In this document: piece after piece, positions 3,641-62,040 of the stretch
Position numbering within the stretch: the first letter of the stretch is position 1
How the letters are laid out: each line of letters opens with the position of its first letter
Assembly (NCBI GenBank): GCA_016647705.1
Contig: CM028332.1
Location: 29,455,300-29,519,299, forward strand
Length of the DNA: 64,000 nucleotides
Direction of reading: 5' to 3'
From: Eucommia ulmoides
Lineage: Eukaryota > Streptophyta > Magnoliopsida > Garryales > Eucommiaceae
The notes under the pieces: generated by a model
The model's database searches: none
Told to the model about the DNA's origin: nothing
The model's input: the letters and a program-made list of their open reading frames with translations, nothing else
Program-made: the position numbers and the translations under genes

Positions 3641-4405
3641 TTGCACTCAATAAATTTCTGAGTTAGAGAACTCAATCGCTTGTTGGGCTAAGGTACCTAG
3701 TTAAGTGATGGTCTTACATACTCAGTTAAACTCTGAGTTAGGAAACTCAGTAATTTGTTGAGTTGAGGTGCCCAGTTAAGTATTGAGCTTCCATGCTCAA
3801 TTAAACTCTGAGTTAGAGAACGTACTTGTTTGCTGGGCTGAGGTACCCAGTTAATTGCTAAGCTTACATGCTCAGTTAAACTCTGAGTTAGAGAACTCTA
3901 TTGGTTGCTGAGCTGAGGTGCCCAGTTAAGTATTGAGCTTATATGCTCAGTTAAACTCTGAGTTAGACAACTCTGTTGTTTGTTGGGCTGAGATGCCCAA
4001 TTAAGTGTTGAGCTTACATGCTCAGTTAAACTCTGAGTTAGAGAACTCTGTTGGTTGCTGGGCTGAGGTGCCTAGTTAAGTACTGAGCTTACATGCTCAG
4101 TTAAACCTTTGAGTTAGAGAACTCAGTTGTTTGCTGGCCTGAGTTACCCAGTTAAGTGTTGAGCTTTTATGATTAGTTAAACTCTGAGTTAGAGAACTCA
4201 GTTGTTTGCTAGGCTGAGGTACTCAGTTAAGTGCTAATCTTACATGCTCAGTTAAATTCTTAGGGAGAGAACTCAGTTGTTTGCTGGGCTGAGGTGCCCA
4301 GTTAAGTGTTGAGCTTACACGCTCAGTTAAACTCTGAGTTAAAGAACGTAGTTGTTTGCTGGCCTGAAGTGCCCAGTTAAGTGATGAGCTTACATACTCA
4401 GTTGT
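3640..4405. repeat. 75-bp tandem repeat array
   Basis: About ten units share the core CTCAGTTAAACTCTGAGTTA. Unit anchors fall at 3721, 3796, 3871, 3946, 4021, 4096, 4172, 4247, 4322 and 4397, a period of 75 bp with a single 76-bp step. Each unit contains a TTAACTGAG/CTCAGTTAA-type inverted motif and a GGGCTGAGGTGCCCAG stem-like segment. The array sits just past the 3' end of the minus-strand Tat pol, between pol and the antisense coiled-coil ORFs, the place where plant Tat elements often carry variable tandem repeats. A period of 75 is a multiple of three, but stops interrupt the frames. Confidence 0.9.
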
Positions 4406-7444: not shown

Positions 7445-7874
7445 ATGGGTATTAGAGTCTATTTCATGTTAAATCATTAGGATTCTTAAAACCTTCATGT
7501 TCATGATATATTTTTCTTTTGGATTTGAGTTTTTTCTCTTACGGTTTATTCCTTATAGAATTGTAGGAGAAAACATTGAGATTATGCATTACTTGATTTA
7601 TGATTGTTGAAAATTATGGATTTGAGGAAGGAAAACGTCATTTTTGTGGAATTTTAGGGTATTTTTCCCACTGCAGAACATAAGGAACCAAGGAAGGTCG
7701 GTCAACTGACCCATAGGTTGGTCAACCGATGGCATCGTATTTTTGAAAGAGTTGGTTACTAAACAAAATGGTCAACAGACAGCATTTGATCAACTAACTG
7801 ACTGGGAGAGGGTGACCGATTAAGAGACGGGCAACCGGTTAGGCCACTAGCCGAATCGGTCAACCGATCGATAA
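7445..7874. other. Copia leader with W-box-like cluster
   Basis: Non-coding leader-like sequence between two LTR copies. The first 60 bases match the sequence after the second copy (8238-8298). From about 7700 to 7870 it carries at least four GGTCAA motifs (reverse TTGACC, the W-box core) in the setting GGTCAACCGA. The same motif cluster occurs in the Sirevirus-like LTRs at 10.4 and 15.8 kb. Confidence 0.5.
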
Positions 7875-21640: not shown

Positions 21641-21895
21641 TTTTTTGGGGGGGGTTCAGAATTCCCACTACTTTATTTCCACATTCCATATTCAATATCT
21701 GAAATGAAGTTTAATAAATAAAATGCTAATAATGTAGTAAATAGTGCATAATGTAAATGTACTATTTAATCAAGTAAAAATAACTGCAACTCATGTGCTG
21801 AATTAACCTATCAACACTCTATCTTACGGTCCACAACTGACAAAACAGCCTGATAATTCTATAGAACCTATAACCTAGGATCTGATACCAAAAAT

Positions 21896-23286
21896 TGTCA
21901 CACCCCATCTTGGGCCCCATGCCTAAGGTTAGGCGTGACCTTGACTCGATGTTACTCAACCAGAAACAAACGAATATGTACCATTTTATAAAAATGATTT
22001 TTTTTTCTTTTTCTAATATTTATATAACCCAAAATTCACCAATTACACATATCCACTATTCCATGACAAAACTACAAAAGTCCAATCTTTCAGTACTAAC
22101 ACCTATATTGATTGCCACAAAAGCAAAACCATACCCTAACTCTATTTAATGCTAGTAGTGGACCCGTCTCTACATGGAATACATGAGACAAAATATTTTA
22201 TCTGTGTAATATCTTTATAATATAAAAATAATTTATAGATAAAATACATTTAACAAAATCCATGTTTCGAAACAGAATATAACCACAATAATACTTTCTA
22301 GAATAAAACATGACCATATACTGAGCAGTGTCAAATCCACAATATTGTCAAGATATAGAAATTGAATATAAATCAACCAATCAAGTCACTTTTACCTAAT
22401 AAAATACTAGAAACATACTTCCCTACTAATCTTAGGATCGTTTTACCTTATGATTGGGAGTTATAACAGTATCGTAACCTATACAACTGTGTGATCTAAG
22501 GTTATCATCAGTGTCAGAGCCATTCAATATCTCTAATGGTAGGAGCCAACACGTTGTATAAATCACCATATCATTATGATAATCATCATCATCAATAGCA
22601 ATAACAATATATATCTATCACCTGCAAGACTTTCCCTTCAGTCAGATCACAACACAACGTCCTATAGGACAATACCCTCTTGTTAGGACTACCAACATCT
22701 CGCAGGACATATCCTCCTGTCGGGATCATAATATGACATAGTAGTACAATAATAAAAATCACTTCTCACATTTCACCATCTACTTTATCTATTTAACATT
22801 ATAAAACAATTCATTTTAATAAATCTTTTTTTTTCACAATTTAGTACGGAAATATAATTTGACAGTTTATATAGAAAACAATACATTCACCTAAAAAATT
22901 ATGCTGCTATTAGACTATTGTCGAAATACTATTATAGTTATCGTCGTTTGAGAACCTAACAATGATATGGCCTAAACTAAGAATTTATTTAAATATATCT
23001 AATATGCAATGTGTGACACTAAAATATATTTTTTTCCATTTCCAAGTTTTTGTAATTATATAAATTTTATTAAAATTAAACGTTCTATTTTCTTAACCCA
23101 ATATTAATTTTATAACTAAAATATTATAGTTATATTTATAAAATTAATCAATTAATAATTTAGTTATAGAGAAAAATATCAACTAACTATTAATAATATT
23201 ACTAGCCAACGAAATAAAAAATTTAATTTTTAATTTAAATTATATTTTTTGCAATTTAAATATTTTTATTTATCAATATAAATCTA

Positions 23287-27828: not shown

Positions 27829-27979
27829 TATCATACCCCTCCCCGGGCCCCACGCCCGAGGTTAGGTATGACCTTGAATTAATGTTAGTCAACTAGAAAC
27901 AAACATACATGTACCATGTTATACAACTATTTTTTTTTTTCTAGTATTTATACAACCAAAATTTAGTGATTATACATAT
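27829..27979 (-). repeat. Tekay LTR C, left part
   Basis: It starts TATCATACCCC (TG mutated to TA) and matches 21896 onward of LTR B, including GGGCCCCA and AGGTTAGG. It is interrupted at 27979 by the 4.2-kb element with duplication CATAT and resumes at 32221. Confidence 0.85.
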
Positions 27980-29297
27980 TGTCACCGGGTTAAAATTTCC
28001 AGCACCAATTTTAAACCAAGTGATGGCCTGATCGTTGGCACAATCAGTCAGTCACGGTGAATGTCCTGCGACGCAGTGGAATTATACTGACATGGTTGTA
28101 ACGCACGCACGTCCCTGCAACGTGACACAACGGGAATACACCGAAACACTACCGAAACGCACCCACGCAACGGCACACACACGTTTACGGGAAAACCCAA
28201 CCTTGTATTACATAACTCGGGTTACAAGGAACCAATTACAACACTCAGCCTGCAAATCCGCAGGGATTCCCTCAGCCTCTCAAAAACAGACCATACGTTA
28301 CAATTTATAGGCAAAAAGGGCAGTTGATAGCCCCAACTGCATAGGCAGACTGATGACACCTGTCCCGACATGTGTCAGCACCCTGGGAGTTGGTTTTCCT
28401 GTCTGAAAACCAACCAAAAACCACCAGAAAATGCCCAGAACTGCCCAGAACCGTCTGGTAACCAACAGTCTACCAGCTTACCACAAGCTCAGCATTCTTC
28501 CAGCGTTTTTGCACCGTCCCAGCATCTGCCCGTTGTCGTCTCGTCCTAAAATTAGCCAACGTTCTCTAACGTCTTACCATGCTGCTTGCATGGCCGGAAT
28601 GCATCATTGCACCCAACGACTGCCAACATTTCGTGTGCTATATCCGTACCAGAATGCACAGCCGCCTAACGGTGCGTCATGTTCCTACATGACTCTGCCA
28701 AAAACATAGCGTTGTGCCTACGTTCTATTTTGTTGCATCGTTCTACCCAATGACGTCCCAACGCCGTATGCATTTTTTGCGCTAAAATGCATCGTCGTTC
28801 TCAACAGTCTGTCATGTCGCACACATAACACTGTTTACCACGTATCATTGCACCTTTGTTGCACCATTTTGCCTCGGTACCGCACCGAGGTCTTCCTTTG
28901 GTCCCGTGACTCTCCACGAAAACCCCATTATCAGTAACCTCTGCCAACGCCGCCAACGTGCGTCCACGTTGCCCAACAGCGCACAGTTTTGCCAACGCCT
29001 ATCCAACAGCTTGGTCCAGCACTTCCCCGCTCCTCCAACGCATGTTGCCGTGTCCAAGGCACCGTTTACAACGTAGTGTTGCACCTACGTTGCACCATTT
29101 TACCGAGGTCCCGAACCGAGGTCTTCCACACTGCCCAACACCCGCCGATGTTGTGCAACAACGCTGCTGCCCACCAATAGGCACCAAGTTGGTGCCCTTT
29201 TTGCCAACGAACCCATCCTTACCGCATGAACCATGTTCGGTAGAAAATCGCACCAAGTCGGTGCTGTTTGGTCCTCCAGCATTGTTAAGGTCTAACA
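27980..29297 (-). repeat. 3' LTR of the non-autonomous element
   Basis: Starts TGTCACCGGGTTAAAATT and ends TAAGGTCTAACA. It aligns with 30904-32220 almost throughout. It contains small perfect hairpins such as GGCACCAAGTTGGTGCC (29180-29196) and CCTCGGTACCGCACCGAGG (near 28872-28890), both repeated in the other LTR. Confidence 0.9.
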
Positions 29298-30889
29298 AAC
29301 CACCCCCACTAAAAGAACCCGATGTCCTCGTCGGATCGTGCCCAGCATAATCCACTGGATTTGGCATGCACCGATGCCACCCGTTCTGCCACAGTCTTTT
29401 CATTCTGTCAGTAGTATTTTCACCATTCGTTGCAACCCGTTGCAACATGTTTGTTAACTCGTTTACAACTTGTTTGTCAAATTACGTCTGTCACAGCCTA
29501 CACATCTACCGACAGACTTGAATCGTTTTGTTGCAACTTGTTTGCAACATGTTTATCAATTCGGTCTGCCACAGTCTTCTCAACCTGCCCACAACCATTT
29601 GTTAAAAAGCCTGTCACAGTCTCCTCAATCTGCCCACAGACTTGCACCGTTCTGTTGCAACCCCGTTGTAATATATTTGTTAATTTTGTCTGCCACAGTC
29701 TCCTCGTTCTGCCCGCAGACTCCTACCTGTCCGTTGTAACTTGTTACAACGTGTTTGTAAATTGCGTCTGTCACAGCCTACACAATCTGCCCACAGACTT
29801 GCACCATTCCGTTGCAACTCCCTGCAATGTGTTCATCAATTGCGTCAGCCACAGTCTTCACAATCTGTCAGCCAACTTGACCCATATCCGTTGCACCTCA
29901 CTACAACGTTTTCATCAAATGCGTCAGCCACAGTCTTCACAATCTGTCCGCCGACTTGAGCCATATTTGTTGCACCTCACTACAACGTTTTCATCAAATG
30001 CGTCAGCCAGAGTCTTCACAATCTGCCTGCCGACTTGACCCCTATCTGTTGCACCTCACTGCAATGTTTTCATCAATTGCGTCAGCCACAGTCTTCACAA
30101 TCTGCCCGCCGACTTGACCCCTATCTGTTGTACCTCACTGTAACGTTTTTCCCACAAAAACCCGTCCGTGACCAGACTGACCACCAACCTAATTGCTACC
30201 GCAGCAATCGAATTTGGCATACACCTATGCCGATGATACTACCACAGCCTCCTCATTCTGCAAGCAGTAGTTTTCCACCAGTTCGTTGCAATCCGTTGCA
30301 ACGTGTTAGCCACAAAGCACCATCCATGACCGGAATGTCCACCAGTCTGCTACCGCAGCAAACCCCATATGGAAATCACAATGATAACCAGCCACCGCCG
30401 GTTATTTTTCAGAGTGGTATAGGATGTTTTTGAGAATCCAAATGCCCCAAATCAGGAAACACCGCATACCTGATTTTAGACCACACATGGTTCGAATTGT
30501 TGTCCACTGACAACGTATTTCCAACGTGCACCCAACGACTTGGTCTAACGCTCCGACGTTCTTCAAATGATGTAAGGTGTCCGTTTGCAGATTGGCATTA
30601 CGCAGCCAATTTCAGACCGCTCCTGGTCTGTCCGTTGCGCTCCAGCAACGCAGTGTCAACGTTCGTCCAACGACTTGGTCCAACGCTCCAACGTTTCTCC
30701 GACGAAGTCAGACGCCCGTTTGCAAATCAGCATCACATAGCTGATTTCAGACCGCTCCTGGTCTGCTCGTTGTTGTTTATCAACAACAAAAATATCGACG
30801 AACGCCCAACAGCTTGGTCCAATGCCTTCGCCCGTTCTTCCAACGTTGTTGGTCGTTCGTGCACCGACGCAGAGCCCACTCGTAGCCAT
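29298..30889. repeat. Internal region of the non-autonomous element with a 79-bp tandem array
   Basis: From about 29560 to 30150 the interior is a tandem array with the recurring core GCGTCAGCCACAGTCTTCAC. Anchors at 29842, 29921, 30000 and 30079 are exactly 79 bases apart. Earlier, more diverged units (near 29566, 29610, 29688 and 29764) use GTCTGCCACAGTCTCCTC. The rest of the interior (30150-30889) has scattered repeats of CCAACG and TTGCAAC. No gag, protease or RT motif is present on either strand; a 203-codon plus-strand open frame at 29430-30038 is a product of the repeat. Confidence 0.85.
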
Positions 30890-30901
30890 GCTCTGATACC
30901 A
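30890..30901 (-). other. tRNA-iMet primer-binding site of the non-autonomous element
   Basis: Minus-strand TGGTATCAGAGC, a perfect match to the common plant initiator-Met primer site, two bases from the 5' LTR that ends at 30904. It shows that the element can be primed in trans by an autonomous partner. Confidence 0.95.
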
Positions 30902-30903
30902 AC

Positions 30904-32220
30904 TGTCACCGGGTTAAAATTTTCACCACCAATTTTAAATCAAGTGATGGCCTGATCGTTAGCACAATCAGTCAGCCACGGTGAATGTCCTGCGACGCAG
31001 CGAAATTATACCGACATGGTTGTAATGCACGCACGTCCCTGCAACGTAACACAGCAGGAATACACCAAAACACTACCGAAACGTACCCACGCAATGGCAC
31101 ACACACGTTTACGGGAAAACCCAACCTTGTATTACATAACTCGGGTTACAAGGAACCAATTACAATACTCAGCCTGCAAATCCGCAGGGATTCCCTCAGC
31201 CTCTCAAAAACAGACCATACGTTACAATTTATAGGCAAAAACGGCAGTTGACAGCCCCAACTGCATAGGCAGACAGATGACACCTGTCCCGACATGTGTC
31301 AACACCCTGGGAGTCGGTTTTCCTGTCTGAAAACCAACCAAAAACCACCAGAAAATGCCCAGAACTACCCAGAACAATCTGGTAACCAACAGTCCACCAG
31401 CTTTCCACAAGCTTAGCATCCTTCCAGCGTTTTTGCACCATCCCAGCATCTGCCCGTTGCTGTCTCGTCCGAAAATTAGCCAACGTTCTCTAACGTCTTA
31501 CCATGCCGCCTACATGGCCAGAATGCATCGTTGCACCCAACAACTGCGAACATTCCGTGTGCTATATCCGCACCAGAATGTACCGCCCCTAACGGTGCGT
31601 CATGTTCCTACATGACTCTGCCAAAAACGTAGCGTTGCGCCTATGTTCTGTTTTGTTGCATCGTTCTGCCCAACGACGTCCCAATGCCGTATGTATTTTT
31701 TGCGCCAAAATGCACTGTCATTCCCAACAGTCCGTCATGTCGCACACATGACACTGTGTACCACATATCGTTCCACCTCCGTTGCACCATTTTGCCTCGG
31801 TACCGCACCGAGGTCTTCCTTTGGTCCCATGACTCCCCACGAAAACCCCATTATCAGCAACCTCTGCCAACGCCGCCAACGTGCGTCCACGTTGTCCAAC
31901 AGCGTACCGTTTTGCCAACGCCTACCCAACAGCTTGGTCCAACACCTCCCCGCTCCTCCAACGCATGTTACCGCGTCCAAGGCACCGTTTACATCGTAGT
32001 GTTGCACCTACGTTGTACCATTTTGCCTCGGTCCCGCACCGAGGTCTTCCACACTGCCCAACACCCGCCGGTGTTGTGCAACAACGCTGCTGCCCACCAA
32101 TAGGCACCAAGTTGGTGCCCTTTTTGCCAACGAACCCATCCTCGCCGCATGCACCATGTCCGGTAGCAAATCGCACCAAGTCGGTGCTGTTTAGTCCTCT
32201 AACATTGTTAGGGTCTAACA
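30904..32220 (-). repeat. 5' LTR of the non-autonomous element
   Basis: 1317 bp, TGTCACCGGGTTAAAATT to TAGGGTCTAACA. It is followed by the target duplication CATAT and the resumed Tekay LTR C. Differences from the 3' LTR are scattered substitutions and few indels. Confidence 0.9.
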
Positions 32221-33579
32221 CATATCCACTATTCCGCGATAAAACTATAAAAGTCCAACCTTTCAATACTAACACTTGCCCTAATTCCACCTAAAGCTAA
32301 ACCACTCTCTGACTCTATCTAATGCCAGTAGTGGACCCGTCTCTACATGGAGTACCTGAAATAAAATATTTTATCGGTTTAATGTCTTCATAATATAAAA
32401 ATAATTTATGGATCAAGTACATTTAACAAAATCCACTTTACGAAACAGAACATAACCACAATAATACTTTCCAAAACAAAAGGTTACCACACACTAAGCA
32501 GTATCAAATCCACAAATATCGTTAGGATATAGCAACTAAACATAAATCAACCAATCAAGTAAGTTTTATATAATAAAGTACCAGAAATATGCTTCTTTAC
32601 TAACCATATGATCATTTCACTTCACGAATGGGAATTATAACTGTACTGTAACATGTACAACTGTGCAATCCAAGGTTGTCATCAGTGTTAGGGCCATTCA
32701 ATATCTCTAATAAAATGAGTCAACAGGTGGTATAAATCACCATATCATAATGATAATCATCATCATCAACAACTACAACAGCAACAACAGTATATATATC
32801 AATCACCTACAGGACTTTTCCTCCTGTCAGGTGGTATAAATCACCATATCATAATGATAATCATCATCATCAACAACTACAACAGCAACAACAGTATATA
32901 TATCAATCACCTACAGGACTTTTCCTCCTGTCAGGTCACAACAGAATGTCCTGCAAGGCATGCCCTCCTATTAGTACTAACAATATCCCGCTAGACATAC
33001 CCTCATGTTGGGATCACACTATGGCATAGTAGTATAATAATAAAAATCACTTTCCATATTTAACCATTTACTTGATCCATTTAATGTTACAAAATAATCC
33101 AATTTAATAAATATTTTCCTTTCACAATTTAATGCAAAAATACAATTTGACAATTTATATTGAAGACGGTACACCAACCTCAAAAATTGCGCTACTATTA
33201 GGCTATCATTGAAATATTAGCATAGTCGGCGTCGCCTTTGTACCTAACAACGATAGGGTCTAAACTAAGAATTTATTTAAATAAATCTAATATGCAATGT
33301 GTGACTAAAATACAATTTTTTTCATTCCAAATTTTTCTTAATTATGTAAAATTTATTAAAATTAAACGTTCTATTTTCTCAACCCATTATTAGTTTTATA
33401 ACTAAAATATTATTGTTACATCTACAAAGTTCATTAATTAATAATTTATCGATAAACAAAATTATCAACTAACTATTAAGAATATTACTAGACAATGAAA
33501 TAAGATTTATAATTTTTACTTTAAATTAAATTCTTCACAATTTTAATATTTTCATTTGTTAATATAAATCTATTGTGTG

Positions 33580-44944: not shown

Positions 44945-45925
44945 CACCTAATTTCATATTATTTCTTTAATTTAATTTCTATAAATTAATATTTTAGTAT
45001 CATTAATTTAATATCCATATATTATGTGTATAATTTTCGTAAATTTAATGCCCATAATTTTAGTATATTATATTTTCTCTTTACATTATTTCTTTAATTT
45101 AAATTTCACAAATTTAATGTTTCATTATTATTATTAAGTTAGATGTTAATATCTTATTTCTTTAATTTTCTTAAACTTAACATTCATAATTTTAGTATAT
45201 TATATTTGCTCTTTCACATTATTCTTTAATATAATTTTTATAAATTTAATATGTTAATATTATTACTAAATTTAATGTCGATATATTATTTCTATAATCT
45301 TTTTGTAAATTTAATGTCCATAATTTCCGTATATTCTATTTTTTCTTTTATATTATTTCTTTAATTTAATTTTGATAAAATTTAATATTTTTGTATTGCT
45401 ATTAAATTTAATGTCCATATATTAATTTTATAATTTTTGTAAGTTTAACGTCCATAATTTTGCATATTATATTTTCTCTTTTATATTATTTCTTCAATTT
45501 TATTTTTGTAAATATAATGTTTTAGTATCATTACTAAATTTAATGAGCATATATTAATTTTATAATTTTCACAAAGTTAATGTCCATAATTTTTGTATAT
45601 TACTTTTTTATATTCTTTTTTAAAATTAATTTTCGTATTTTTAATATTTTGCATTATTACTAAATTTAACGTCCATATATTATTTCTATAATTTCCATAA
45701 ATTAAAGTACATAATTGTTATATATTATATATATATATTTTATATAATTTCTTTAATTTATTTTTTAGAAATTTAATGTCCATATGTTCTATATATTATA
45801 TTTTCTCTTTCATATTATTTTTTAATTTAATTTCTATAAATTTAATATTTTTGTATTATTATTGAATTTAATGTCCATATATTATCTCTATAATTTTCAT
45901 AAATTTAATAATTTGAGTTGTTTAC
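44945..45925. repeat. AT-rich tandem array, period about 130 bp
   Basis: Diverged repeats of a unit containing TTTAATGTCCATATATTATT and TATATTATATTTTCTCTTT. Successive CCATAT/GATAT anchors lie 126-136 bases apart (for example ends at 45284, 45420, 45552 and 45678). A related array is at 47575-48650, and a short remnant is at 61180-61330. It is non-coding. Confidence 0.8.
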
Positions 45926-45926
<1 letters not shown>

Positions 45927-45978
<52 letters not shown>

Positions 45979-45980
45979 CA
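45927..45980. repeat. (TAA)n microsatellite
   Basis: Roughly 16 perfect TAA units, followed by AACAACAACTT and an A-run. It marks the end of the first AT-rich array. Confidence 0.95.
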
Positions 45981-46489
45981 ACTTAAATTCTGAAAAAAAA
46001 AAAAAAAAGTAGATTTCTCACTTATTTACCAAACCAGAACAAGTTGGTGTGGGTAACATCAGCAAACTAAAGCCAGTGTTCTCAACACCGACATTTAAAA
46101 AAATAAAAACAGAAAACCCGGGGTTAACTACTTTGGGTATAAGTCTTTTTTTTTTTTTTTTTTTTTTAGGTGAAGCAGATGTTCATAACACTGACTTCAC
46201 CCATTCCACACCCTTAAACTGGGGTTTATAACCCTGGTTCCACCACCTCCTATACACCCCATTACACCCCATTATCTTATATAGTGATGCTTCACATGAA
46301 TAGTTTGTTAAGGATTAAAATATAGTAACAAAATTATTTTTAAGGCCAAATTATATGGTAAGCCCCTGAATTTTGTCAATCATTTCAAACCATCTCTTTA
46401 ATTTGGATATTTTTCAATTAAGCCCCCAATTTTTTTTAAAATATTACTAACCTTTTTATATGCTTCAATTGATTTTTTTACTTTTCCAT
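45981..46489. other. Unassigned spacer with T-run
   Basis: It holds a T-run at about 46147-46166 and CACCCCATTACACCCC near 46254-46270. No homologous copy and no coding motif are seen in the window. Confidence 0.4.
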
Positions 46490-47530
46490 AGATTTGTTTG
46501 CCCATTTATTTTTTTTAGATCTGTTTGACTATTTGATTTTTTTCGATGGTTGTTCTTGGTTGTTCATGATTTAATTTCCCTGATTTTTTGTTCTTGGAAT
46601 ATTGTTTATTTTTAGATTTGGAAAACATGAAACGCCTTCAGATTTGGATTGGATATTATTCTGATTTTCGTTGTGTTTGGCCCTATCGGATTTTGATCTG
46701 TCTTCGCTGATTTGATTTCGCTATTTGATTTTGCTAACGTGCTTTCTCTTTCTGTATCTCTCAGTTGCAAGCCCCACATTATTTTTGCCACCGCGAACCA
46801 TTACCGCCTTGGAACTATTGATCGTCGCCCTCTCTCTCTATCAAATCTGGAAAATCTAGATCTAGAATTTTCAGATTTGTGAATGTTTATGTCAATTTTT
46901 GCTTATTTTTTGGGTTTTTTGTGAATGATTACATTGGATTGTGGTTACGTGAATGTTTACACCGATTTGTTTTATTGATCTTATGATTTTTTTAATGTTT
47001 TTTATTTATTCTGAAATATTGAATGAACATTCACATGAAATTGTACATTCATAACTATTTTTTTATTAAATTAGTGAAATATTTAGTGAACATTGAGTAA
47101 AATATTCTTCTAAAATATTGAATGAAATATTGAGTGACCATTGAATGATATATTATTCTGAAATATTGAGTAAACATTCACACGGAAGTGAAAATTCACA
47201 GCAACACAATCAGCCTCGTTAATATATATTAAACGTTAAAAATAGCAAAATATGTTAAATTTATATCAAGTGAATGTTCACACATTGTTATATCTCACAA
47301 AATGGTTATTTTATGTAAATTAGGAAAAAGTGATAATCAAAGATCAATTACTATTTTTTAAAAAATCTTCGAGGCCTGAAAACTTAATTAAAGTAATTAG
47401 ATGTCTATTTTATAGCCTCTATATCTTTGGAGGACTAAATAATAAAATTCATAAATATATATTTTATATTTATGTTATATTTTAGTTTAATCTATATCGT
47501 TTCCTATGTTCGTTCTTAAAGGCACAAGCG
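46490..47530 (+). repeat. Dispersed repeat family R, unit 2
   Basis: Aligns with 43830-44930 and 61330-62040, starting near TTTGACTATTTGATTTTTTT and ending with GAGGACTAAATAATAAAATT. It is followed by an A-run and a second AT-rich tandem array, the same order as after unit 1. Confidence 0.7.
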
Positions 47531-47574
47531 CCAAAAAAAAAAAAAAAAAGAAGGGAAAAATAAAACCCAACTAA

Positions 47575-48650
47575 TTTAATATCATTTCTTTAATTTAATT
47601 TCTATAAATTAATGTTCCAGTATCATTAATTTAATATCCATATATTATTTATATAATTTTTGTAAATTTAATGTCTATAATTTTAGTATATTATATTTTG
47701 TCTTTATATTATTTTTTTAATTTAAATTCCCTAAATTTAATGTTTCATTATTATTACTAAGTTAGATGTCTATATATTATTTCTATAATTTTCCTAAATT
47801 TGATGTTCATAACTTTCGTATGTTATATTTGCTCTTATTACCTTAATATATTTTTTATAAATTTAATATTTCAGCATTATTATTAAATTTAAGGTCGATA
47901 TATTATTTGTACATTTTTTTTAAAATTTAGTGTCCATAATGTTCGTATATTACATTTCTTATTTTATATTATTTCTTTAATTTAATTTTGGTAAAATTTA
48001 ATATTTCTGTATTATTATTAAATTTAATATCCATATATTATTTTTATAATTTCTGTAAGTTTAATGTCTATAATTTTTTGTATATTATATTATTTCTTCA
48101 ATTTCATTTATGTAAATATAATGTTTTAGTTTTATTACTAAATTTAATGAGCATATATTATTATTATAATTTGCACATTTAATGTCCATAATTTTCGTAT
48201 GTTACTTTATATTATTTTTTAAATTAATTTTCACAAATTAAATAGTGTATTATTATTAAATTTAATATTCATATATTATTTCTGTAATTTCCAGAAATTA
48301 AAGTCCATAATTGTTATATATTATATTTTTCGTTCATATTATTTCTTCAAATTATTTTTTATAAATTTAATTCCCTTACGTTCCATACATTATATTTCTT
48401 CTTTCATATTATTTCTTTAATTTAATATCCATATATTATTTTTATAATTTTTATACATTTCATCTCTTTAATTTTCATATATTATATTTTCTTTTTATAT
48501 TATTTTTAATTTAATTTTCATAAATTTAATGTCCATAATTTTCGTATATTATATGTTATCCTTTATATTACTTCTTGAATTTAATTTCCATATATATATA
48601 TTATCCTTATCATTAAAAAAAAATGTATTCTCTTTTTTCGATTAGGTATA
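47575..48650. repeat. AT-rich tandem array, second block
   Basis: Repeats of the same ~130-bp unit as 44945-45925, with AATTTAATGTCCATAATTTT and TATATTATATTTTCTTT. It is AT-rich enough that short open frames in it are meaningless. Confidence 0.8.
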
Positions 48651-58889: not shown

Positions 58890-59785
58890 GAATCAAACCT
58901 CACCAGCGAAGCAAAAACATGACCATTAACTTCTCGCATTCAGAAGCTTCCCATGCTGAGTTCGACAACCAAGAACAGCATTTATGCTGCCAACGATAAT
59001 CTTCTGGTGATCTACGGTGACCAAAGGCAATCTTACACAGTTTGCGAGGGAGAAAGACAGGTGTGTGTTCGAGAGATATTGAGATGATTTAATATATTTC
59101 TTAGTTTCTATACTTAGACCTTGAATACTTGCCATTAAAAATAAAAATAAAAAAATCATATTAAATTAAACTTGTAGCAGTTTCCAATAATTATTCATTA
59201 AAATATGGAGGTAAAATTAAAATTGAAGAGTAATAATAATTTTAATTAATACTAAATTTATTTTTAGTAATTTTCAAAAATTATTCCTTTAAATATGAAG
59301 TCAAAACTAAAATTGAAGAGTAAACATATTTTCCAATAATACTAAAATTGAAGAGTAATTTACTAAAATCATTCATTAAAATATAGAGACAAAATTAAAA
59401 TTGAAGAGTAAAAATAATTTTTACTATTAATAATTTTAATTGGAGGAAATAAATGTAAGGAAGATTTATATTTAATAGAATAGATTATACTAGTAGATTA
59501 AATATGCTATTACTTATAGAATGGATTTATATATATAGATTAAATATATTCTCTATCTTCTATTATACAAAAAAATATATTTTTGTTCTTAATTAAGTAT
59601 AAGATATAGAGGTATTTATTGTTTAATCTTTATTTTAGAGTTAATGTAGAAATTAAATCAAACAAACAGTTAGGTTGTTTGTTTATTGAATCCATACAAG
59701 TAATTTATTTTTTAAGCCTTGACAGATAAAAAAAAAAAAAACAATAGACGGAATATATAATGAAAAAGAAATAATATTTCCTTTC
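58890..59785 (+). repeat. Dispersed repeat block, AT-rich linker (copy 2)
   Basis: Collinear with 42531-43489, with the same internal TTAAAATTGAAGAGTAA repeats at about 59215, 59310 and 59395. A poly(A)-like tract lies near 59728-59740. Confidence 0.75.
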
Positions 59786-60005
59786 ATTTTTCAGTCAACC
59801 TCTCTATCTATCTTGAGTTTCAACTGCAACCCTCATCTCCACCATCTATTTCAACCCCTCTATTGAAGCCAAGTACTTTTCCACCCTAATGACCTATTCT
59901 CTATCACCACTTTCAGCTCCCTCTCCCACTCGCGAGGCAAAGGTCGATGACAACGGTGGATCTCGGAAGCATCAGCACTCGCAATGTCAGAGCGACAATC
60001 TCTCT
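59786..60005 (-). pseudogene. Type I MADS-box fragment, copy 3
   Basis: Minus-strand sequence collinear with the two copies at 41.4 and 43.6 kb. The FWW core is lost, but VEKYLAS.EGLK.MVEMRVAVE-like sequence is preserved at the 3' end and the acidic/GA tracts are in place. It shows that the captured MADS piece travels with the repeat block. Confidence 0.5.
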
Positions 60006-60059
60006 CTCAACGTATCGACGTCAGAGCCAAGTTGTCTGTTCTTCCAGTCGCTGGATGAA

Positions 60060-61135
60060 ACGACGAACACGACGATCTGTTCTTCTAGATTTGGTTTGAT
60101 TTTTGCCAATTTTATTTTTTATTTTCCCAGATCTGTTTGCCGATTTGATTTTTTATTTTTTTGGATCTATTCAACGATTTGATTTTTGCTGATGATTGTT
60201 CTAGGTTGTTCTTGATTTTATTTCGCTGATTTGTTGTTATTGGAATTTTGTTTGTGTTTAGATTTATAAAACACGAAATGTGTTCAAATCCTGATTTGAT
60301 CTCATTTGGATTGGCTCCATCAGATTCCAATCAGCATTTGCTGATTTGATTTCGCTGTTTTTTATTTTGTCGCTTTGCTCTCTCTCTCTCTCGCTCTCAA
60401 CTTCAAGCCCCACATCATTTTCAGATCTGTCAATTTTTATATGAATTTCTTTTTGTGTTTTTTTTTTTGTGTCAATGTTCATATCACATTGTGGTTTAGT
60501 GAATGTTTATACCGATTTATTTTTACTAAGCTTAGGATTTTTTGTTAATTTGTTTTTTATTTGTTCTTAAATACTGAGTGCACATTCATACAAAAATGTA
60601 CATTCATAAATATTTCTTAATTAAATGGGTAAAGTATTGAGTGAACGTTGAGTGAAATATTGTTCTGAATTATTGAATGAAATATTGAGTGAACGTTGAA
60701 TAAAATATTGTTCTGAAATATTTAGTGAACATTCACACAGAAGTAAAGATTCACAACAACACAATCAGACCCATTAACATATATTAAATGTTAAGAATAA
60801 CAAAATATATTAAACATTTTATAATGTTTATGTGATGTTATATCTCTTAAAATGGCATTTAACGTAAATTAGGAGAAAAATATGGTCAAAGATTAGGGAT
60901 TATTTTCTAAAAAATCTTCGAGGGCTAAAAAATTAATTAAAGTAGTTGGAGGTTTTTTTTTTATAATTTATGTATCTTTGGAGGACTAAATAATAAAATT
61001 TCTAAATATATATTTTATATTTATGTTATATTTTAGTTTAATCTACATTGTCCTTTGCCCTTTGTCTACTAAGGCATCATACAGATGAAAAATGTCTAAG
61101 TTTCTTATGTCCGTGCTTGAAGGCACGGTTGTAAA
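60060..61135 (+). repeat. Dispersed repeat family R, unit 3
   Basis: Aligns with unit 1 (43830-44930), including TTTGGTGTGAATGTT-like GAATGTT motifs, GAACATTCACACAGAAGT and ACTAAATAATAAAATTTC. It is followed by an AT-rich remnant (61150-61330). Confidence 0.75.
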
Positions 61136-61329
61136 AAAATAAAAAATAAATATATAAATTGAACCTAATTTCATATTATTTCTTTAATTTAATTTATATA
61201 AATTAATATTTCATTATCTTTAATTTAATATCCATATATTATTTGTATAATTTTTGAAAATTTAATGCCCAAAATTTTAGTATATTATATTGTCTCTTTA
61301 TATTATTTTCTCTTTATATTATTTCTTGA

Positions 61330-62040
61330 TCTACCTTTGTTGATTTGATTTCACAATTTGTTTTCGTTGGCGTGCTTTCCTTTTCTCTATCTCTCAATCG
61401 CAAGCCTCACGTCATTTTTGCCATGGCGAACCATCGCTGCCGTGAAACCGTTGACCATCGCGCCCTCTCTCTCTCTCAAATGTGGAAAATTCCAGATTTA
61501 GAATTTTTAGATCTCTGAATATTTATTTGAATTTTGCTGATTTTTGTGAATGCTTTGTGAATGTTCATATCGGATTGTAGTTTGGTGAATGTTTACACCG
61601 ATTTGTTTTCACTGATCTTATGATTTTTTTCAATGTTTTTTATTTGTTTTGAAATATTGAGTGAATATTCACATAAAATTGTACATTCATAACTTTTTTT
61701 TTTAATTAAATGAGTGAAATATTGAGTGAAGATTAAGTTAAATATTCTTCTAAAATACTGAATAAAATATTGAGTGAAATTTGAATGAAATATTATTCTA
61801 AAATATTGAGTAAATATTCACACAAAAGTGAAGATTCACAGCAATACAATCAGCCTCATTAATATATATTAAATGTTAAAAATAGAAAAATATGTTAAAT
61901 TTATATCAAGTGAATGTTCACGTGTTGTTATATCTAACAAAATGGCACTTGATGTAAATTAGGAGAAAGTGATTATCAAAGATCAATGACTATTTTCTAA
62001 AAAATCTTCGAGGACTGAAAACTTAATTAAAATATCTTTT
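61330..62040 (+). repeat. Dispersed repeat family R, unit 4
   Basis: Aligns with unit 2 at 46490-47530 (GATCTACCTTTGTTGATTTG start, TGGCACTTGATGTAAATTAG end). It is the second unit of the block, in the same order as at 42-47 kb. Confidence 0.7.

What the first reader, a model, noticed from the sequence alone, without database searches (positions are those of the whole stretch)
27980..32220. GC-rich non-autonomous LTR element with 79-bp internal repeats and no coding capacity
Seen: intact TG...CA ends, CATAT duplications, a perfect initiator-Met primer site, a purine tract, similar 1.3-kb LTRs, and a 1.6-kb interior that is mainly a 79-bp tandem array. Nothing resembles gag or pol. Inference: a recently active LARD-like family mobilised in trans. 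Its base composition differs sharply from the surrounding Tekay LTR, so the parental lineage is not obvious.
Basis: partly seen in the sequence, partly recalled or inferred. Interest (0 to 1): 0.75.

Follow-up and report, generated by a model that had tools for sequence, protein, structure and literature searches.

The report
Gene-less retrotransposon with chromovirus partner
This is a plant jumping element with no genes of its own; gag-bearing relatives and the gene-complete element that very probably moves it were found in the same genome, so it is a well-resolved new member of a known kind rather than something new in principle.

Summary
In detail: 27980-32220 is a 4,241-bp LTR element (sense strand minus) with 93.0% identical LTRs, CATAT duplications, primer site and purine tract, and no detectable gag or pol. 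The 79-bp array fills about a third of the interior. A sister repeat keeps the empty site at 22048-22052. The family has many copies in a 947-Mb genome, and its relatives were found. (1) A gag-bearing, pol-less family shares leader, interior and LTR (84.6%, one copy compared); the gag-less copies lack gag between what are two imperfect 18-bp repeats in L030. (2) A 6.3-kb chromovirus shares the last 77 bp of the LTR (88-91%), the primer-site region, the purine tract and the end of pol. Its sampled insertion sites fit the motif of the gag-less family. One locus is a single-insertion chimera of both. The window copy is a mosaic: a gag-less body with a chromovirus-like LTR end, switching at bp 77 in both LTRs (p 8e-8 to 1e-14). 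Trans-mobilisation is supported; "recently active" (about 3-5 My) and "parent not obvious" are not. New member of a known kind (LARD / TR-GAG / autonomous system).

The parts
27975..27979 (.). target-site duplication CATAT
32221..32225 (.). target-site duplication CATAT
30904..32220 (-). 5' LTR in the sense direction (1317 bp)
   Evidence: 93.0% to the other LTR
27980..29297 (-). 3' LTR in the sense direction (1318 bp)
30904..30980 (-). last 77 bp of the LTR (U5 end), type B, like the gag-bearing family and the chromovirus
   Evidence: 95% to L029, 91% to L031, 55-60% to four gag-less relatives; breakpoint at 77
27980..28056 (-). the same 77-bp type-B end in the other LTR
30890..30901 (-). primer binding site TGGTATCAGAGC
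   Evidence: GGTATCAGAGC is exact in L030 and L032, one base off in L031, two in L029; the leading T is G in L030, L031 and L032. tRNA identity recalled
30781..30903 (-). 5' leader including the primer site
   Evidence: 88.6-94.3% to the leaders of 20 gag-bearing slices
30763..30785 (-). scar of the gag deletion (remnant of a direct repeat)
   Evidence: read by eye: in L030 gag is flanked by GTGAACAGTAACGAGCAG and GTGGACAACAACGAGCAG; one copy is left here
30511..30772 (-). short tandem array, period about 135 bp (2 copies, 77%)
   Evidence: 2.7-3.9 copies of period 135 in L011, L015, L023, L027
29611..30149 (-). 79-bp tandem array (about 6.4 copies), decayed copies to about 29455
29298..29335 (-). 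remnant of the C-terminal end of pol plus purine tract (AGTGGGGGTGG about 29300-29310)
   Evidence: 84-87% over 36-38 bp to the chromovirus copies; one search shows the ends
22048..22052 (.). empty site (single CATAT) in a sister copy of the flanking repeat
   Evidence: joined-flank alignment to 21778-22637, 80%

Best explanation
The element is a gag-less, pol-less LTR retrotransposon that replicates as a parasite of a Ty3/gypsy chromovirus. Shown by sequence: it is closest to a gag-bearing, pol-less family of the same genome and lacks that family's gag between short direct repeats. It shares with a chromovirus the LTR end, most of the primer site, the purine tract and, in the samples taken, the insertion-site preference. 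A single-insertion chimera of the gag-less family with a chromovirus-type element exists, and the window copy has a mosaic LTR. Inferred: its RNA is packaged into particles built by chromovirus (and perhaps gag-only) Gag, copied by the chromovirus reverse transcriptase and inserted by the chromovirus integrase; the mosaic LTR end arose by a template switch between co-packaged RNAs early in minus-strand synthesis, which explains why both LTRs carry it.
For: Chromovirus copies L031/L032: LTRs 93.5-94% identical, 5-bp duplications; L031 pieces match Retrotrans_gag, aspartyl protease, RVT_1, RNase H, integrase zinc domain, Tf2-type SH3 and, in part, Chromo (E 1e-4, just under its cut-off; well above it in L016, E 6e-9). 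Shared with the window: last 72-77 bp of LTR 88-91%, first 24 bp of leader 87-92%, 36-38 bp at the purine tract 84-86%. L029/L030: gag 50% and 49% aa identical to the L031 gag, E 3e-116 and 6e-114; L030 vs L031 dN 0.32, dS 2.2, ratio 0.14. 20 of 20 sampled slices from the 36 remaining scored type-B leader hits are gag-bearing. Gag-deletion repeats. Motif from 19 gag-less units scores 9 chromovirus sites at 6.2 on average against -9.25 in background and 0.05 reversed; 0 of 20000 resamples and 0 of 20000 shuffles reach it. L016: outer LTRs of the gag-less family 95.5% identical, TTAGG on both sides, chromovirus-type LTR plus integrase/chromodomain inside. Mosaic: 12 of 12 tests p 8e-8 to 1e-14, breakpoint 77-78.
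Against: No expression or transposition data. Ages do not overlap in the copies read: L031 and L032 (K 0.039, 0.038), L030 (0.034) and L029 (0.059; part of the LTR for the last two) are all younger than the seven gag-less pairs (0.063-0.126). The first primer-site base differs between the window (T) and L030-L032 (G). Only one insertion of another LTR-like element was available as motif control (score -6.1), so the motif could be common to many chromoviruses; one of the 9 chromovirus sites scores low (-3.2, 87th percentile), and the gag-less sites themselves fall to the 69th percentile when left out in turn. The gag-less majority carries a different LTR end (type A), for which no complete partner could be sought because the pattern searches did not complete. 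Both chromovirus copies read are broken into several ORFs. Direction of the LTR-end exchange is not settled. bp 678-1317 of the window LTR are as close to L029 (88-92%) as to gag-less relatives.
Confidence: 0.82

Rival explanations
1. Simple internal-deletion derivative of a complete element with the same LTRs, without a gag-bearing stage.
For: The end of pol, purine tract, primer-site region and LTR termini match the chromovirus.
Against: LTR 1.3 kb against 0.87 kb and 56.6% identical overall. The interior between leader and purine tract gave no nucleotide match to L031 or L032 but matches L029 and L030.
Confidence: 0.07
2. The gag-less family depends on a different, unseen autonomous element carrying the type-A LTR end; the chromovirus moves only the gag-bearing family, and the window copy is a host-switch recombinant.
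For: Of 26 LTRs of the gag-less family, 24 are 50-58% identical to the window over the 77-bp end and two (L009, L013) are intermediate at 67-68%. All 12 sampled ends of the chromovirus LTR family are type B by eye, though the probe that found them was type B itself. The age gap would fit too.
Against: The outermost 11 bp or so, most of the primer site, the purine tract and the insertion motif are shared across types.
Confidence: 0.22
3. Dead relic whose copies were spread by segmental duplication or are an assembly artefact.
For: Repeat-rich surroundings.
Against: 19 of 19 units tested have their own 5-bp duplications (16 exact) at places on several contigs; empty site in the sister repeat.
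Confidence: 0.01

Closest known systems
Non-autonomous centromeric retrotransposons of Coffea (TRIM, LARD and TR-GAG beside autonomous CRM elements; PMC5818461, passages seen)
   Same: A chromovirus lineage with gag-only and non-coding derivatives in one eudicot genome.
   Different: Here the chromodomain lies upstream of the purine tract, which is not the CRM arrangement; a chimera, a shared insertion motif and an LTR-end mosaic link the tiers.
RLG_Cereba / RLG_Quinta of einkorn wheat (PMC11302176, passages seen)
   Same: Pair proposed from shared primer site, LTR termini and purine tract; the gag-only partner evolved from the complete one.
   Different: Quinta keeps gag; here a further tier lost gag.
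[quoted passage not shown]
   Same: Co-evolving autonomous and non-autonomous families with little homology left; host switch by LTR exchange is proposed there.
   Different: Here an LTR-end mosaic with a located breakpoint is seen.
Complex elements made by template switching in Triticeae (PMC1950507, abstract and results section seen)
   Same: L016 shows the signs given there: inner LTR, flanking duplications, similar outer LTRs.
   Different: Two different families are fused, and one of the two interiors is truncated.
LARD (Kalendar 2004) and TR-GAG (Chaparro 2015), both recalled and as cited in papers seen (PMC10552921, PMC8704663, passages)
   Same: The window copy fits LARD in lacking genes; L029/L030 fit TR-GAG.
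   Different: Interior only 1.6 kb; two relatives (L012, L017) are under 4 kb in all, near TRIM size (length limits recalled).

Membership tests
LTR retrotransposon | two LTRs with TG..CA ends and a 5-bp target duplication | tested here: met
LTR retrotransposon | primer site and purine tract next to the LTRs | tested here: met
   tRNA identity recalled
LARD | no gag or pol reading frame | tested here: met
   window. Relatives: tblastn with chromovirus integrase/chromodomain pieces against L009-L028 except L016 gave one hit, in L018 outside its LTR; gag was not searched there, but in the two-LTR copies the leader abuts the same interior
LARD | large size (limits vary; recalled, total over about 4 kb) | tested here: inconclusive
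   window 4241 bp; six relatives 3588-4866 bp
LARD | mobilised in trans by a complete element | tested here: inconclusive
   sequence, chimera and insertion-motif evidence only
TR-GAG | gag frame present, pol absent | tested here: not met
   not met by the window; relatives L029 (Retrotrans_gag) and L030 (homology) have gag, with internal stops now
Chromovirus (the partner) | Ty3/gypsy domain order with a chromodomain after integrase | tested here: met
   L031 pieces, (Chromo partial, 22.5 bits against 25.1); L016 pieces, (Chromo 36.2 bits)
CRM clade (the partner) | chromodomain downstream of the purine tract | tested here: not met
   chromodomain lies upstream of the tract; criterion from PMC3605345 section 7
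Galadriel or Reina clade (the partner) | place in an RT/INT tree | not tested
   no clade-labelled reference sequences at hand
Retrozyme | hammerhead ribozyme in the LTR | tested here: not met
   Rfam search of the window at gathering scores, 0 matches; no laxer search was run

The most novel reading that the evidence does not exclude
The terminal 77 bp of the LTR act as an exchangeable 'passport' module. They stay about 91% alike between the chromovirus LTR and the gag-bearing family, while the rest of those LTRs aligns only in part (71-72% over 200-226 bp). Gag-less copies can swap them (window breakpoint 77; L009 near 45, weaker support) by template switching and so change which helper copies or inserts them. 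The window copy would be a caught host switch.
Probability: 0.22. Interest if true: 0.65.

Novelty: new member of a known kind. Interest (0 to 1): 0.42.

Why it matters
Which complete element moves a given gene-less retrotransposon is usually inferred from a few shared bases. Here several lines point to one partner, and a shared insertion-site motif is offered as a test that needs no sequence similarity between the elements. The mosaic LTR end and the single-insertion chimera are DNA-level traces of co-packaging, which makes the proposed 'host switch by LTR exchange' testable in one genome.

Tried and rejected
Considered and rejected: copia affiliation (a first guess from the LTR start; the chimera and L031 point to a chromovirus); retrozyme; hidden protein in the interior (the only Pfam match below E 1 is ATP-synt_F, E 0.08, under its cut-off, in the repeat array, taken as chance); recent deletion derivative of the chromovirus. 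Led nowhere: genome patterns for a complete element with the type-A LTR end (not completed); a control set of other LTR insertions (only one found); clade naming of the chromovirus (4336 protein relatives, 120 listed, plant names among them but no clade labels). Rows dropped: 3 of 12 chromovirus LTRs were left out of the motif test because they showed no matching duplication or LTR ends; one of the 9 kept has one mismatch in its duplication. L018 and L021 were not among the 19 units (L018 shows ATAGT on both sides; L021 was not scored). In one search the truncated L016 LTR at 7669 was left out.
Full report
What is there. The element occupies 27980-32220 exactly as reported, read on the minus strand. 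LTRs of 1318 and 1317 bp are 93.0% identical, CATAT flanks it, and a sister copy of the flanking repeat keeps the uninterrupted site with one CATAT at 22048-22052. The 1606-bp interior holds a primer site, a 123-bp leader, a short ~135-bp array, a middle stretch, a 79-bp array of about 6.4 copies over 539 bp, and a purine tract. Four of 75 ORFs were scanned and have no Pfam match at its cut-off; chromovirus gag and integrase/chromodomain pieces find nothing inside the element. 68-bp modules repeat inside the LTR.

The family. The genome is held (946.7 Mb, 391 contigs; the window is C8:29455300-29519299). A 401-base LTR probe gave 1035 first-look candidates, 40 scored, the weakest E 1.3e-124. 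Of the 20 loci of 10 kb fetched, 7 have two LTRs of the family around the same interior (L011, L012, L015, L016, L017, L023, L027; L016 is a chimera) and 13 show one LTR only. 19 units (window plus 18 of these 20 loci) were tested for duplications: 16 exact 5-bp matches and 3 with one mismatch. LTR divergence K is 0.063-0.126 in seven pairs including the window, whose K 0.0735 gives 2.8 My at 1.3e-8 or 5.3 My at 7e-9 substitutions per site and year (rates recalled, the first also given in PMC5818461). Array copy numbers differ between copies.

The gag-bearing tier. A probe of leader plus LTR end (161 bases) gave 219 candidates, 40 scored. Two were read at length: L029 and L030 carry the window's leader (92.4 and 92.6%), interior pieces and LTR type, plus a gag region of about 1.1 kb between leader and interior. 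That gag is 50% and 49% identical in amino acids to the L031 gag, with Retrotrans_gag found in L029. L030 against L031 gives dN 0.32 and dS 2.2; L029 against L031 has saturated dS; L029 against L030 gives ratio 0.57. So gag was long under selection in this line while no pol was seen beside it in the copies read. Both copies have stops in the aligned part now (3 and 4). Twenty of the 36 other scored places (all but window, L016, L029, L030) were sampled as slices; 20 of 20 have the gag start (84-93% to L029). In L030 gag is flanked by two imperfect 18-bp direct repeats; the gag-less copies compared (window, L011, L015) keep one and nothing between (read by eye).

The complete tier. L016 holds an inner LTR of 857 bp followed by integrase and chromodomain. 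That LTR gave 826 candidates, 40 scored, with eight pairs 5.44-5.55 kb apart among them. Two pairs, fetched as L031 and L032, are 6.3-kb chromoviruses with 93.5-94% identical LTRs and duplications; L031 has gag, protease, RT, RNase H and integrase matches and a partial chromodomain match just under its cut-off, the L016 one being above it. Both copies are broken into several ORFs. The chromodomain is upstream of the purine tract, unlike the CRM arrangement described in PMC3605345. Shared with the window element: last 72-77 bp of LTR 88-91%, 262-290 bp further in at 68-71%, the first 24 bp of the leader 87-92%, and the pol end with the purine tract at 84-86%. The first base of the primer site differs (T in the window, G in L030-L032). 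Over the whole LTR, window against L031 is 56.6%.

Chimera. L016 is bounded by TTAGG on both sides. Its outer LTRs belong to the gag-less family and are 95.5% identical over 1198 aligned positions; inside lie the gag-less interior, a chromovirus-type LTR, and the 3' part of a chromovirus pol. One outer LTR lacks its end at the pol junction. This matches the signs of template switching between two co-packaged RNAs given in PMC1950507, followed by a deletion (inference).

Mosaic LTR. Over bp 1-77 the right-hand window LTR is 95% like L029 and 91% like L031, but 55-60% like four gag-less relatives; over bp 78-677 it is 86-92% like L011 and L015 and 73-82% like L029; over the rest (U3 side) it is about equally close to both. 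Twelve three-way tests (both window LTRs, two gag-bearing and three gag-less references) give Fisher p from 8e-8 to 1e-14 and a best breakpoint at 77 or 78. L009 shows a weaker mosaic with a breakpoint near 45 (p 0.03-0.08). The window shares one leader base (GAGTGGG) with L029 and L030 against six other gag-less leaders, but at the primer site's first base it goes with L011, L015 and L023, so how far the patch runs into the leader is open. Both LTRs carry the patch, as expected if it arose before or during reverse transcription. Direction is open: retention of an ancestral end is possible.

Insertion motif. In window orientation the 19 gag-less sites read roughly A..ATR, then duplication STAGG, then CCA. 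A weight matrix from them scores 9 chromovirus sites at a mean of 6.2 (range -3.2 to 14.2; 87th to 100th percentile of 61,864 background positions, mean -9.25; 0 of 20000 resamples reach it). The gag-less sites left out in turn average 5.6 (69th to 100th percentile). Shuffling letters within sites gives 0 of 20000, flanks alone 0 of 20000, and the reversed sites average 0.05. Against over-reading: 3 of 12 sampled chromovirus LTRs were dropped because they showed no matching duplication or LTR ends, and a single other LTR-like element served as control (score -6.1).

Age. The chromovirus copies read (K 0.039, 0.038) and L030 (0.034, part of the LTR) are younger than every gag-less pair measured (0.063-0.126); L029 (0.059, part of the LTR) is close. 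The chromovirus pair came from the top of a similarity list, so the sample is biased; but joint activity in time is not shown.

Known context. Complete, gag-only and non-coding tiers of one chromovirus lineage are in print for Coffea CRM elements (PMC5818461); pairs in wheat are in PMC11302176 and PMC9744471; transposition of a gag-only element in Arabidopsis ddm1 plants is in PMC8704663. I saw passages of these, not whole texts. Six library searches gave no listing that seemed to describe this family, but I saw listings and abstract starts only, had no species name to search with, and subscription papers are not held. Filed as a new member of a known kind.

Noticed in passing
27980-32220: Sense strand is enriched in GTTGG (43 seen, 15.0 expected) and CGTTG (35 seen, 8.6 expected), in LTRs and interior alike, with little CpG loss (observed/expected 0.96 against 0.69 in the rest of the window). 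Unexplained.
   Followed up: partly
L013, L022 (LTR ends): LTR ends that by eye look like a third kind between types A and B, in two single-LTR copies; over 77 bp L013 is 66.7% and L022 55.1% like the window.
   Followed up: no
L023: The ~135-bp array has grown to two runs of 3.4 and 3.8 copies, giving a 2254-bp interior.
   Followed up: no
32724-32936: A perfect 104-bp tandem duplication just outside the element, with CAT/CAA-rich sequence.
   Followed up: no
3657-4403: A 75-bp tandem array of about 10 copies.
   Followed up: no
44951-48595 and 59181-61818: AT-rich related arrays (periods about 48, 90 and 127-132 bp) occurring in several places.
   Followed up: no
   Followed up: partly
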